This document shows, in pieces, positions 37,970 to 42,604 of a stretch of DNA of 64,000 nucleotides. The DNA is from Xanthomonas sacchari (lineage in GTDB: Bacteria; Pseudomonadota; Gammaproteobacteria; Xanthomonadales; Xanthomonadaceae), in contig NZ_CP132343.1 in NCBI RefSeq assembly GCF_040529065.1, forward strand, positions 4,216,001 to 4,280,000, given 5' to 3'. The notes under the pieces are model-generated. The model was not told where the DNA came from. It did not search any database and saw only the letters and a list, made by a program, of their open reading frames with translations. Both the position numbers and the translations under genes were made by a program. Position 1 is the first letter of the stretch, and every line of letters begins with the position of its first letter.

Positions 37970-38659
37970 TTAGTGGGACTTCGGCTTGGGTTTAGGCTTC
38001 GGTTTCGCCTTGGGCCCATGCTTCGGCGCAGCATCATCCGCATGCGCGTGCAACGGCTTGTGATGAGGCTTGGGCGTCTTCGGTTTCGGCGGCAACGGCT
38101 GCAGCGTCGCCGCGCTGGCGCCCAGCGCCTGCGCATGCAGCACCTGGCCATGCGCGGACTCAAGCAGTTCGCCCTGCGCCGCCAACGGCTTGCCGGCGGC
38201 CAGCCAGCGCGCCGATTCCGGCACCGCGTGGGGCGGGAAGCGCACGATCAGCCCGTCCTCCAGCAGCGCGCCATGCACCTGCCCGTGCGGGCCGTGCAAC
38301 AGCCGCGCGATGGTGCCGGTGTGGTGCACCGCGTCCTGCGCGGACGTGGGCTTGGCCGGCGGCTTGGGCTTGGGCTTATGCGGCGCGGCATGCGGGCCCT
38401 CGTCGACGATGCGCTCGGCACCGTCCGGATCCACCGCCAGCGCCACCAGTACATCGGCGCCGCGCGGCTTGAGTCCGCGCACGCCGAGGCCGGCGCCCGG
38501 ACGCAGCGCCTTCAGCAATTGCGCCGACAGGTGCGGCGGGGTGTGCACTTCGGTGCCGTCGTCGAACAGCAGGCCGTCGACGTCGGCCTTGGGGTTGAGC
38601 AGGAAGCGCGCGAGCGTGCCACGGGTTTCCGGCAGGGAATCGGGATCGACCCAATGCAT
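37970..38659 (-). CDS. Two-module protein with Lys-Pro repeats (unrecognised family)
   Basis: A 229-residue protein with no signal peptide. It carries two copies of a ~65-residue module (residues ~14-76 and ~115-179): GTLARFLLNPKADVDGLLFDDGTEVHTPPHL and GTIARLLHGPHGQVHGALLEDGLIVRFPPHA, split by a KPKPKPPAKP linker. The tail (188-229) is a basic Lys/Pro/His repeat ending KPKPKPKPKSH. The G-x-V...G-x-DG-x-V-x-x-PPH pattern suggests small beta-barrels, perhaps OB-like (inference). The neighbour at 38760 has the same two modules, so they are tandem paralogues. ATG 38659 has GGAG 7 nt upstream. Confidence 0.7.
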   Translation of the reverse strand: MHWVDPDSLPETRGTLARFLLNPKADVDGLLFDDGTEVHTPPHLSAQLLKALRPGAGLGVRGLKPRGADVLVALAVDPDGAERIVDEGPHAAPHKPKPKPPAKPTSAQDAVHHTGTIARLLHGPHGQVHGALLEDGLIVRFPPHAVPESARWLAAGKPLAAQGELLESAHGQVLHAQALGASAATLQPLPPKPKTPKPHHKPLHAHADDAAPKHGPKAKPKPKPKPKSH

Positions 38660-38759
38660 TGCATTCTCCAGACGAACAAAGGGGGATGCCGGCGGGGGCC
38701 GGCAGCGCCCGCCGCGAACGGCGGGCGCAGGGGTCAGGCGCGATGCAGCAGCGCCCGGA

Positions 38760-39845: not shown

Positions 39846-41183
39846 CTACAGCCCGTACTCGTCGAGCTTGCGATACAGGAGCTGGCGATGGATGCCGAGC
39901 CGGCGCGCGGCCTCGGCGCGGTTGCCGTGGGCCTGGGTCAGCGCGGCCTGGATCATCTGCCGTTCCAGTTGCGCGATCGCCTGCGGCAGGGTCAGCGCCT
40001 CGGTGTCCAGCGTCGTGGGCGTCTCGGCGGGCTGGGCCAGCAGCTCGTCCAGGTCGTGCGCCTCCACCACCGGCGCGCGCACCAGCACCTGGCAGCGCTG
40101 CATGGCGTTGCGCAGTTCGCGCACGTTGCCCGGCCAGGGATAGGCGCGCAGACGCGCCTGCGCTGCAGTCGACAGGGTCTGCGGGGCGCTGCTGCCGGCG
40201 GCGAGGAAGTGCTGGGCGAGCAGCAGGATGTCGTCGCCGCGCTCGCGCAGCGGCGGCAGTTCGATCGGCACCACGTTGAGCCGGTAGCGCAGGTCGCTGC
40301 GGAAGCGCCCGGCGTCCACCGCCTGCAGCAGGTCGCGGTGGGTAGCGGCGATCACCCGCACGTCCACTTTCTGCGCGCCGCGCCCGCCCAACGGCGACAC
40401 CTCGCCTTCCTGCAGGAAACGCAGCAGCTTGGCCTGCATCGGCAATGGCATGTCGCCGATCTCGTCGAGGAACAGGGTGCCGCCATCGGCGTCGCGGATC
40501 AGGCCGTTGCGGTCGCTCACCGCGCCGGAGAACGCGCCCTTGCGGTAACCGAACAGTTCGCTCTCCATCAGCTCGGCGGGAATCGCCGCGCAATTGATCG
40601 CCACGAACGGCTGCGCAGCACGGGTGCTGGCACGGTGCAGCGCGCGCGCCGCCAGTTCCTTGCCGGTGCCGGTCTCGCCGGTGATCAGCACCGGCAGGTC
40701 GGAGGCGGCGGCCAGGCCGATGCGCTTGTGCACGGTGCGCATCGCCGCGCTGTGGCCGAGCAGCGCGTCGTCCTCCTCCGCGGGCAGGGCCGGTGCGGCA
40801 TCCGGCATGTCGTCGCCGCGGCTGCGCAGGGCGCGCTCGACCACCTCGGCGATATCGGCGCGGCCCACCGGCTTGACCAGGTGATCGAAGGCGCCGAGCT
40901 TCATCGCCTCGATGGTATTGCCGCTGGACGCATGCGCGGTGAGCATCACCAGCGGCACGCGCATGGCCTGCGCGTCGTCCTGGCGTGCGCGCATCAGCGC
41001 GATGCCGTCCATGCCGGGCATGCGGAAATCGACGAAGGCCAGGTCGAGGCCGCCCTCGCCCAGGCGCGCCAGGCCCTCGCGCGGGTCGGCCACGGCCACC
41101 ACCTCGTGGCCGAACGAGCGCAGCGTCGCCTGCAGGGTGCTGAGGAACGCCAGATCGTCGTCGATGATCAGGATGCGCGCCAT
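39846..41183 (-). CDS. NtrC-family sigma-54-dependent response regulator
   Basis: A 445-residue activator. Receiver domain (1-~120): IIDDDLAF, Asp52 in FVDFRMPGMDG, Lys104 in LVKPVG. AAA+ domain (~142-370): Walker A GETGTGKE (169-176), the sigma-54 contact loop GAFSGA (216-221), Walker B LFLDEIGD (237-244) and the RYRLNVVPIELPPLRER sensor region. A Fis-type HTH ends the protein (NRAEAARRLGIHRQLLYRKLDEYGL). The Ser in place of Thr in GAFTGA is tolerated in some activators. It overlaps the kinase gene by 16 bp. Confidence 0.94.
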   Translation of the reverse strand: MARILIIDDDLAFLSTLQATLRSFGHEVVAVADPREGLARLGEGGLDLAFVDFRMPGMDGIALMRARQDDAQAMRVPLVMLTAHASSGNTIEAMKLGAFDHLVKPVGRADIAEVVERALRSRGDDMPDAAPALPAEEDDALLGHSAAMRTVHKRIGLAAASDLPVLITGETGTGKELAARALHRASTRAAQPFVAINCAAIPAELMESELFGYRKGAFSGAVSDRNGLIRDADGGTLFLDEIGDMPLPMQAKLLRFLQEGEVSPLGGRGAQKVDVRVIAATHRDLLQAVDAGRFRSDLRYRLNVVPIELPPLRERGDDILLLAQHFLAAGSSAPQTLSTAAQARLRAYPWPGNVRELRNAMQRCQVLVRAPVVEAHDLDELLAQPAETPTTLDTEALTLPQAIAQLERQMIQAALTQAHGNRAEAARRLGIHRQLLYRKLDEYGL

Positions 41184-42604
41184 GGCAGCTCCAGGCTGAA
41201 CTCGGTGATGCCGTCGCGATGCGTGTAGTGCGCCTCGCCGCCATGGGCGCGGGCGATCTCGCGCACCAGCGCCAGGCCCAGGCCGTTGCCGTCGCTGCGG
41301 CCGCTGGCGAACGGTTCGAACAGGTGCGCGGCCACCGGCGCCGGCACCGGCTCGCCCTGGTTGCGCACGCGCAGGTGCAGCAGGTCGTTCTCGGCCTGGG
41401 CGGCCAGGATCACCTCGGTGCCAGGCGTGGCGTGCTGCAGCGCATTGCGCAGCAGGTTGTGCAGGGCGCGCGCGGCCTGCTGCGGATCCAGCATCCACTG
41501 CGCCGGCGCCGCCTGCAGGCGCAGCGCGATCGGCGGCGTCTGCCCGTCCCAGTCGGCCGGATCCAGCAGCGCCTGCAGCCACGGCTGCAGCGCCACCGTC
41601 TGCCGGTGCAGGCGGATCGGCTGGACCATGCCGAGCAGGCTTTCCACCACCCCGTCCAGGCGCTGGATCTGCGCCAGCATCAACTGCGCCTGGGCGTCGT
41701 CGGCACCATCCGCGTGCGCGGCGATCTGGTTCTCCAGCGCCAGGCGCAGGGTCGCGATGGGGTTGCGGATTTCGTGCGCCACGGTCGCGGTCATGCGCCC
41801 CAGCGCGGCCAGGCGTTCGTGCCGCGACAGTTCCTCGCCGAGCCGGCGGGTCTCGGCCAACGCCTGCGCGTTGCGCTGCGCGTAGTCGGTGACCGCGGCA
41901 CCGAGCCGGTCCAGCTCCGGCGCGCCGGTCTTCGGGATCTGCGGCACCTCGGCCGGCGTCGCCAGGGCCTGCTGGATGCCCTGCAGGCGCTGGCTCCAGC
42001 GCCGCACCACCCAGCCCAGCGCCAGCGCCGACACCACCACCAGCGCCAGGATCAGCGCCATCCCCAGCGCCAGCGGCAGGCTGGCCGCGGCGTCGCTGGA
42101 AGCCACGCGGGTCATGGCCCAGGCCGCGGCATTACGGTCCAGCGGGCAGGCCGCGATCAGCAGGCTCTCGCGCTGCCCGTCGCGGCGGTAGTCGACCGTG
42201 TGTTGCGCCTCCACCCCGCGCTGCACGGTGGCGACGATGACGTTGCGCTCGGCCGAGGGCACGTCGGTCTTGTGCTCGGTCCCATCGTAGGTCGGGTAGG
42301 CGTAAGCCAGGAAGCCGCGCTGGCGGTCCCAGAAGCCGCCTTCCACGCCGGCCGCATCGGCCAGCACCAACTGCGACACCACCGCCGCCAGGCCGGTGCC
42401 GTCGCTGCCGTGGGCAGCGGCGCTGGCGCCGTTGTAGCGCTGCACCATGCGCGTGCACACCTCGCGCAACCCGGTCTGCGCACGTTCCGCGCGCACGCCC
42501 TCGCTGTGCCGGTACAGCCCGACCAGCACCACCGCCATGCCGACGCAGGCGGCGACGATGACGATCCAGATCAACAGCAGTTGCCGCAGCAGCGAACGGG
42601 GCAT
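41168..42604 (-). CDS. Membrane sensor histidine kinase paired with the NtrC-type regulator
   Basis: A 478-residue kinase. TM1 (about 9-31) and TM2 (about 176-200) bracket a ~145-residue periplasmic sensor region without a family I can name. A short cytoplasmic linker leads to the HisKA domain with His277 in TVAHEIRNPIATLRL, then HATPase motifs: NLLRNALQHA (N), VRNQGEPVPA (degenerate G1), FEPFASGRSDGNGLGLALV (F/G2). It overlaps the regulator gene by 16 bp; the pair is surely one operon. The signal is unknown. Confidence 0.92.
   Translation of the reverse strand: MPRSLLRQLLLIWIVIVAACVGMAVVLVGLYRHSEGVRAERAQTGLREVCTRMVQRYNGASAAAHGSDGTGLAAVVSQLVLADAAGVEGGFWDRQRGFLAYAYPTYDGTEHKTDVPSAERNVIVATVQRGVEAQHTVDYRRDGQRESLLIAACPLDRNAAAWAMTRVASSDAAASLPLALGMALILALVVVSALALGWVVRRWSQRLQGIQQALATPAEVPQIPKTGAPELDRLGAAVTDYAQRNAQALAETRRLGEELSRHERLAALGRMTATVAHEIRNPIATLRLALENQIAAHADGADDAQAQLMLAQIQRLDGVVESLLGMVQPIRLHRQTVALQPWLQALLDPADWDGQTPPIALRLQAAPAQWMLDPQQAARALHNLLRNALQHATPGTEVILAAQAENDLLHLRVRNQGEPVPAPVAAHLFEPFASGRSDGNGLGLALVREIARAHGGEAHYTHRDGITEFSLELPWRAS

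What the first reader, a model, noticed from the sequence alone, without database searches (positions are those of the whole stretch)
37970..42604. A self-contained sigma-54 signalling circuit with uncharacterised output genes
Seen: a membrane histidine kinase and an NtrC-family activator with a GAFSGA loop overlap by 16 bp. Just downstream on the same strand lies TTGGCACGGCCTCTGCAT, with GG and GC exactly 10 bp apart, 46 bp before the next ATG. A 43-bp near-perfect dyad is centred about 84 bp upstream of the -24. Known: NtrC-type proteins bind dyads ~100 bp upstream of sigma-54 promoters. Inferred: the pair senses an unknown periplasmic signal and switches on the exported two-module protein, its paralogue and possibly the MFS gene.
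Basis: partly seen in the sequence, partly recalled or inferred. Interest (0 to 1): 0.82.

Follow-up and report, generated by a model that had tools for sequence, protein, structure and literature searches.

The report
Conserved Xanthomonas sigma-54 envelope-signalling circuit
A membrane sensor and its partner regulator most likely switch on a neighbouring gene for an exported protein, through a special promoter whose key parts are kept in every related genome compared; it is a well-supported new example of a known type of bacterial switch, with output proteins of unknown job.

Summary
A histidine kinase and an NtrC-type regulator (16-bp overlap) lie just upstream of a gene for an exported protein preceded by a sigma-54 -24/-12 element. 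Footprinting on orthologous blocks is the main evidence. In 43 of 43 intergenic regions read, the -24/-12 lies 62-65 bp before the start codon. In all 43 a TGTC-N9-GAC site (window: TGTCCGCAAAGCGGACA) starts 89-91 bp upstream of it, followed 20-22 bp further on by a second, weaker site. An IHF-like block lies between these sites and the promoter; the remaining DNA is poorly conserved. The 17-bp site has no other copy in the genome within one mismatch, so this is probably a one-target circuit. Kinase sensor and output module occur strongly in the same 46 of 395 family genomes; two relatives keep only a broken kinase, and two reduced genomes keep kinase, regulator and exported protein without the paralogue. 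The output proteins are predicted tandem OB-folds, one exported and one without a signal peptide, with no significant Pfam match. Signal, output function, and whether paralogue and MFS gene share the transcript remain unshown.

The parts
41168..42604 (-). Membrane histidine kinase (P0004, 478 aa): two TM helices by inspection, periplasmic sensor about residues 31-175 with a PAS/single-Cache-like order of predicted elements, HisKA (H277), HATPase_c
   Evidence: catalytic core nearest ZraS 9jfj by sequence, second by fold
39846..41183 (-). NtrC-family response regulator (P0003, 445 aa): receiver (D52), AAA+ with GAFSGA loop, Fis-type HTH
   Evidence: 16-bp overlap with the kinase
39697..39713 (-).
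   Evidence: TGTC-N9-GAC 89-91 bp upstream of the -24 element in 43 of 43; mean information 1.71 bits per position in 37 dereplicated sequences; no other match at up to 1 mismatch in the genome
39676..39692 (-). UAS2, TGGATGGAACGGAGACA, proposed second, weaker site, 21 bp from UAS1
   Evidence: mean information 1.57 bits, 8 of 17 positions invariant in 37 sequences; shift from UAS1 21 bp in 31, 20 in 11, 22 in 1 of 43
39628..39640 (-). IHF-like site AATCAATGGCTTA (WATCAANNNNTTR) between UAS2 and the -24
   Evidence: exact in 14 of 15 of the window's genus; in the sister genus one mismatch in 12 of 28 and two to four in 16 of 28
39607..39623 (-). sigma-54 -24/-12 element TTGGCACGGCCTCTGCA; expected start of transcription near 39596
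   Evidence: 62-65 bp before the ATG in 43 of 43
38760..39560 (-). Output 1 (P0001, 266 aa): signal peptide by inspection, proline-rich flanks, two predicted OB-folds (about 52-131 and 151-222)
   Evidence: no Pfam match at E up to 1 or NCBIfam match at E up to 0.1
37970..38659 (-). Output 2 (P0002, 229 aa): paralogue without signal peptide, same two modules, Lys/Pro/His-rich tail; co-transcription inferred
   Evidence: P0002 orthologues 35-40% identical to P0001
36564..37823 (-). MFS transporter gene; membership in the circuit uncertain
   Evidence: syntenic, but not found in the fetched stretch of two reduced genomes that keep the core, and only a partial match in L071
39681..39729 (.).

Best explanation
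This is a dedicated, probably single-target sigma-54 circuit of the Xanthomonas group. The kinase senses a periplasmic or envelope signal through its extracytoplasmic domain and phosphorylates the regulator at D52 (inferred from family knowledge). The regulator binds two sites two helix turns apart, centred about 109 and 88 bp upstream of the expected start. IHF or a similar bend lets it reach sigma-54 polymerase at the -24/-12, and it drives transcription of the exported tandem OB-fold protein, probably running on into the paralogue and perhaps the MFS gene. The anatomy and its conservation are shown here; binding, phosphorylation, transcription, signal and output function are inferred. The likeliest physiological role is an envelope-stress or envelope-buffering response, working like ZraSR-ZraP or QseEF, with the exported protein acting in the periplasm.
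For: 43 of 43 intergenic regions keep -24/-12 and UAS1 at near-fixed spacing (62-65 and 89-91 bp). In 37 dereplicated sequences mean information is 1.71 (UAS1), 1.57 (UAS2), 1.06 (IHF-like block) and 1.60 bits (-24/-12), against 0.37 and 0.33 in the spacer and upstream. A further genome, split over contigs, shows the same promoter (L097). Kinase, regulator and P0001 are in the same order in 43 of 45 blocks; the other two are cut by contig ends. Kinase sensor and output module have strong matches in the same 46 of 395 family genomes. In six genomes without P0001 the best regulator matches are at most 50% identical, against 87% in G012. Two of these six, G270 and G347, carry a broken kinase with no regulator or output match, and no -24/-12 match, in the fetched stretch. 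G001 and G012 keep kinase, regulator, elements and P0001 without P0002. UAS1 has no other match at up to 1 mismatch.
Against: No transcript, binding or genetic data. Loosened -24/-12 and UAS patterns are not enriched in genome or window. The IHF-like site is exact only in the window's genus; in the sister genus 16 of 28 have two to four mismatches. UAS2 is a poor palindrome (mean 3.6 of 8 pairs in best register). Adjacent genes can share presence and absence simply by being lost in one deletion, and the 43 sequences come from two related genera. The envelope role rests on location and analogy.
Confidence: 0.85

Rival explanations
1. The -24/-12 is real but is activated by another enhancer-binding protein of the cell; the neighbouring kinase and regulator control something else.
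For: Nine strong sigma-54 activator domains in the window's genome, besides three weak partial matches.
Against: Regulator and elements are lost together in the genomes checked; UAS1 sits next to the regulator and has no second copy within 1 mismatch; reduced genomes keep kinase, regulator, sites and P0001.
Confidence: 0.08
2. The dyad is an RNA hairpin, a terminator of the regulator gene, rather than a protein-binding site.
For: Near-perfect 23-bp arms with a 3-nt loop, about 117-165 bp after the regulator's stop codon.
Against: No terminator-like site found in 36000-45000; no Rfam match there; outer arms paired in only 6 of 43 while the 17-bp core is near invariant at fixed distance from the promoter; a second, hardly palindromic block is almost equally conserved.
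Confidence: 0.04
3. Only P0001 is under this promoter; paralogue and MFS gene have their own promoters.
For: Gaps of 75-148 bp between the two outputs in 41 genomes and about 86-306 bp to the MFS gene in 39 of 41 (two estimates of 0 and 3 bp); hairpin-plus-T-run candidates between the outputs in 14 of 41 and before the MFS gene in 3 of 41 by a crude rule; G001 and G012 have no P0002 and no MFS gene in the fetched stretch.
Against: Same strand and order in the blocks where they were found; no sigma-70-like site found in the window stretch, though such a scan is weak in GC-rich DNA.
Confidence: 0.35
4. Chance -24/-12-like sequence with no promoter function.
For: Loosened pattern is no commoner than its control.
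Against: 43 of 43 conservation with diverged flanks.
Confidence: 0.02

Closest known systems
QseE/QseF (GlrK/GlrR) and the glmY promoter
   Same: sigma-54 activator, three UAS of TGT-N12-ACA form, help from IHF, target next to the kinase-regulator genes, envelope role (PMC6075780, abstract and passages)
   Different: UAS here is TGT-N11-ACA; target is a protein, not a small RNA; GlrR equivalog cut-off not reached (362.8 against 763 bits); a QseG counterpart was not searched for
ZraS/ZraR with ZraP
   Same: Kinase core closest to ZraS by sequence and second by fold after a WalK model; sigma-54 activator; exported protein as adjacent target (zraP and hydHG listed under ZraR in PMC3844500, passages; adjacency of zraP recalled)
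   Different: Below ZraR and ZraS equivalog cut-offs (372/760 and 134/479 bits); target is tandem OB-fold, not ZraP; no UAS or -24/-12 match ahead of the kinase
NtrB/NtrC (GlnL/GlnG)
   Same: Best-scoring NCBIfam family for the regulator (425.8 bits)
   Different: Below the cut-off of 558.6; the true NtrC is a separate gene (731.7 bits in G081)
XibR
   Same: NtrC-family regulator of Xanthomonas
   Different: Orphan without linked kinase, other aspartate positions (PMC5130282, passages); listed as GX_XOC3779 in PMC6090019, Table 2
Exported OB-fold proteins (BOF/YgiW type, CcmE), recalled except for the CcmE match
   Same: Periplasmic OB-fold; CcmE appears weakly in the fold search (8ce8_E, E 0.031)
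   Different: Two modules with proline-rich flanks; no significant Pfam match, nearest single-member module hits DUF7454 (0.026) and DUF5666 (0.15)

Membership tests
NtrC-family (bacterial enhancer-binding protein) response regulator | Receiver, AAA+ sigma-54 interaction and Fis-type HTH domains in order | tested here: met
   PF00072, PF00158, PF02954 all over cut-off
NtrC-family (bacterial enhancer-binding protein) response regulator | GAFTGA loop and phospho-acceptor aspartate | tested here: met
   GAFSGA (Ser for Thr) and D52 invariant in the 20 orthologues aligned of 43; activity of the Ser form not tested
sigma-54-dependent promoter | GG and GC 10 bp apart in a -24/-12 context before a gene | tested here: met
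   43 of 43
sigma-54-dependent promoter | Transcription requires RpoN and activator ATPase | not testable with these tools
   no expression data held
NtrC-type UAS (definition recalled) | Dyad site(s) roughly 80-150 bp upstream of the start, phased by whole helix turns | tested here: met
   Sites about -109 and -88; shift 21 bp in 31, 20 in 11, 22 in 1 of 43; spacing to the -24 89-91 bp. Binding itself not tested
IHF-assisted sigma-54 promoter | IHF consensus (recalled) between UAS and promoter | tested here: inconclusive
   exact in 14 of 15 of one genus, 0 of 28 in the other; background 0 of 7687 positions exact, 1 with at most one mismatch
ZraSR system | Equivalog score for ZraR and ZraS; autoregulation by the same elements | tested here: not met
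   for scores; no matching element ahead of the kinase
QseEF/GlrKR system | Equivalog score for GlrR | tested here: not met
   362.8 against 763 bits
NtrBC system | Equivalog score for NtrC | tested here: not met
   425.8 against 558.6 bits
OB-fold proteins (outputs) | Five-strand barrel with helix between strands 3 and 4 | tested here: met
   Predicted order E-E-E-H-E-E twice, modules mostly at pLDDT about 90 or more; top Foldseek matches are SSB-type OB-folds at E 6e-5 but with TM-scores near 0.2. Prediction only

The most novel reading that the evidence does not exclude
A genus-wide, one-target envelope-sensing circuit whose output is a new protein family: twin tandem-OB-fold proteins, one exported and one kept in the cytoplasm, made from one sigma-54 promoter, with the exported one possibly feeding back on the kinase's periplasmic sensor.
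Probability: 0.3. Interest if true: 0.6.

Novelty: new member of a known kind. Interest (0 to 1): 0.45.

Why it matters
Here regulator, sites and target of a sigma-54 pathway are pinned down by conservation and can be tested with one promoter. The output is an unnamed family of tandem OB-fold proteins, found here only in two xanthomonad genera, and the smaller version kept in reduced genomes points to the exported protein as the core target.

Tried and rejected
Terminator or structured RNA for the dyad: no terminator-like site, no Rfam match, outer arms not conserved. Regulator as XibR: rejected. Weak P0001 matches in 19 further genomes (65 matched in all; E about 6e-6 to 1e-3): these mostly begin in the signal-peptide or proline-rich stretches, and the module profile finds only two genera in the family (46 of 395 genomes). 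In a class-wide draw of 369 genomes, with few of this family, only the window's own genome scored well; 5 others had E 0.005-0.008, treated as chance. The kinase-sensor search matched 54 of 395: the 46, degraded copies in G270 and G347, a remnant in G016 and 5 weak matches (E 5e-4 to 8e-4) treated as chance. A sigma-54-like site in G016 (L096:9463) looked like a variant circuit but lies before a nitrate-type MFS gene; G016 has only the short kinase remnant after the oxidase gene, seen (E 1.3e-5) and not by tblastn. PDB sequence search with the outputs: nothing up to E 10.

Literature searches listed no paper that I recognised as describing this circuit; I looked at listings and the passages named below, main texts only, freely licensed papers only. 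RpoN papers were read in passages (PMC7280030; PMC8546981), not in supplements, so regulation of this locus by RpoN may already be in a table. PMC3130047 was read in passages without a link.

Rows dropped: 46 genomes have strong P0001 matches. The window and 44 fetched blocks were compared. G108 was not fetched because its gene is split over two contigs. L050 and L089 begin inside P0001 at a contig end and were left out of the promoter count (43); L050's genome was later seen on another contig to have the same promoter (L097). For information content, 43 were reduced to 37 at 90% identity. Protein alignments used subsets: 27 P0001 and 19 P0002 rows, 29 kinases, 20 regulators, 18 of the 33 modules cut.
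Full report
WHAT IS THERE. The window is G000:C1:4216001-4280000 of a 4.96-Mb genome. Its genus (g1) and the genus g17 belong to one family. A named Xanthomonas dyei contig has the same length (33,214 bases) as the contig of G228 in g17 that holds the locus, so I take g17 as Xanthomonas proper and g1 as a neighbouring xanthomonad genus (inference). On the minus strand, in order: a ubiquinone-dependent pyruvate dehydrogenase gene (44447-42723; called the oxidase gene below), a histidine kinase (42604-41168), an NtrC-type regulator (41183-39846), a 285-bp gap with the regulatory elements, an exported protein P0001 (39560-38760), its paralogue P0002 (38659-37970), and an MFS transporter (37823-36564).

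Kinase and regulator overlap by 16 bp and the regulator carries GAFSGA. The -24/-12 lies at 39623-39607 and the inverted repeat at 39681-39729. By pattern alone the promoter is a good but not extraordinary match: 7 exact matches to TTGGCACGNNNNNTGCW in the genome, 34 at up to one mismatch against 35 for the reversed control, and in the window 2 at up to two mismatches against 8.35 expected. The inverted repeat has no second copy within 3 mismatches.

CONSERVATION MAKES THE CASE. P0001 was found in 16 of 20 genomes of the genus and, in a family-wide draw of 395, strongly in 46; 19 more had weak matches, mostly beginning in low-complexity stretches. I compared the window and 44 fetched blocks. 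The order kinase, regulator, P0001 is seen in 43 of 45; the other two are cut by contig ends. In 43 of 43 intergenic regions read, the -24/-12 begins 62-65 bp before the ATG, and a TGTC-N9-GAC site starts 90 bp (33), 89 bp (6) or 91 bp (4) upstream of it. Over 37 dereplicated sequences, conservation falls into sharp blocks: UAS1 1.71 bits per position, UAS2 1.57, an A/T-rich block of IHF type 1.06, -24/-12 1.60. The spacer between UAS2 and that block has 0.37 and the upstream flank 0.33.

CORRECTION TO THE DYAD. The conserved parts are the 17-bp core TGTCYGCAAAGCGGACA and a second block, TGGATGAAAYGCAGACG, shifted by 21 bp in 31, 20 in 11 and 22 in 1 of 43, matching that consensus in at least 13 of 17 positions, with the right half like UAS1 and the left half degenerate (mean 3.6 of 8 palindromic pairs). 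Two sites about two helix turns apart fit an oligomeric enhancer-binding protein. They are centred about 109 and 88 bp before the expected start.

IHF-LIKE SITE. WATCAANNNNTTR is exact at the same offset in 14 of 15 sequences of the window's genus; background in the same gaps is 0 of 7687 positions exact and 1 with at most one mismatch. In the sister genus 0 of 28 are exact, 12 have one mismatch and 16 have two to four. So a bend there is likely in one genus and only possible in the other. The consensus is recalled from general knowledge.

A DEDICATED CIRCUIT. The UAS1 pattern has a single match in the genome at up to 1 mismatch, and one more at 2 mismatches elsewhere. No -24/-12 match at up to one mismatch lies ahead of the kinase, so autoregulation by the same elements is not indicated. 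The kinase's sensor region is found strongly in the same 46 genomes as P0001, and so is the output module. In six genomes without P0001 the best matches to the regulator are paralogues of at most 50% identity, against 87% in G012. In G270 and G347 the oxidase gene and a broken kinase remain, while no regulator or output match at E 0.001 and no -24/-12 match was found in the fetched 12 kb. G016 keeps a short kinase remnant after the oxidase gene (E 1.3e-5; not seen by tblastn). G001 and G012, with 3.5-3.7 Mb genomes, keep kinase, regulator, elements and P0001 but not P0002, and no MFS or oxidase gene was found in the fetched stretch. Because the genes are neighbours, single deletions could explain part of the joint loss.

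THE PROTEINS. The kinase has a conserved periplasmic region of about 145 residues whose predicted order (long helix, two strands, helix, three strands) resembles PAS or single-Cache sensors; the model is of moderate confidence (mean pLDDT 69.8, pTM 0.37). Its core is nearest to ZraS by sequence and second-ranked by fold, after a WalK model. The regulator is below the cut-offs of the 25 best NCBIfam families shown, of 119 matched. P0001 has a signal peptide by inspection and two predicted OB-folds, mostly at pLDDT about 90 or more. Fold matches are to SSB-type OB-folds with TM-scores near 0.2, so they support the fold but not a nucleic-acid function. P0002 has the same two modules, no signal peptide by inspection and a Lys/Pro/His-rich tail. 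Neither whole protein has a Pfam or NCBIfam match at E 0.1 or better; P0002 has one chance-level Pfam match (Nrap_D3, E 0.38), and single modules reach DUF7454 at 0.026 and DUF5666 at 0.15. The module was found in two genera of the family (395 genomes) and not credibly in 368 other genomes of a class-wide draw.

HOW IT MOST LIKELY WORKS. Signal in the periplasm, phosphorylation of D52, binding to UAS1/UAS2, looping helped by IHF or curvature, sigma-54 polymerase opened at 39607-39623, P0001 made and exported. Anatomy and conservation are shown; the steps are inferred from NtrC-family knowledge. Read-through into P0002 and the MFS gene is possible but unproven: gaps are 75-148 bp in 41 genomes, and about 86-306 bp before the MFS gene in 39 of 41. 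By a crude rule 14 of 41 have a hairpin-plus-T-run candidate between the outputs, several of them overlapping the ribosome-binding region, and 3 of 41 before the MFS gene.

LINK TO PUBLISHED WORK. In G081 the true ntrC (731.7 bits) lies about 18 kb from this regulator. In a response-regulator screen of X. oryzae pv. oryzicola (PMC6090019; abstract, passages and the section with Table 2 read) glnG is GX_XOC0263 and an unnamed 'ntrC family' regulator is GX_XOC0286, 23 tags away; my crude gene list for G081 has 14 genes between the two, so the distances agree only loosely. By position, GX_XOC0286 is plausibly this regulator's orthologue; its mutant showed extracellular protease at 147.5% of wild type. 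No sequence comparison was made.

VERDICT. A well-supported, ordinary kind of switch with an unnamed output family and a clear footprint. Interest is moderate: it makes one orphan sigma-54 pathway directly testable, but does not change the view of such pathways.

Noticed in passing
39728-39822: GGGATTGGGGATT-type heptamer repeats in inverted arrangement between the regulator's stop codon and the UAS; a G-quadruplex-forming repeat enriched in Xanthomonas is the subject of PMC4692102 (search listing and start of abstract only).
   Followed up: partly
L096:9463-9478: sigma-54-like CTGGCACGCCGATTGC before an MFS gene of nitrate-transporter type, with NrtA-like and ANTAR-type genes nearby, in G016 (gene names recalled from sequence).
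   Followed up: no
37970-38100: P0002 ends in a Lys/Pro/His-rich tail of variable length in the aligned orthologues shown.
   Followed up: no
L060, L063, L072, L074, L079-L082, L084 between P0001 and P0002: Hairpin followed by a T-run in the gap between the two output genes, a possible attenuator; 14 of 41 genomes by a crude rule, not in the window.
   Followed up: no
42257-42316 (kinase residues 97-116): Strongly conserved periplasmic motif, GFLAYAYPTYDGTEHKTDVP in the window, with most positions invariant in 29 aligned kinases; a candidate ligand-contact region.
   Followed up: no
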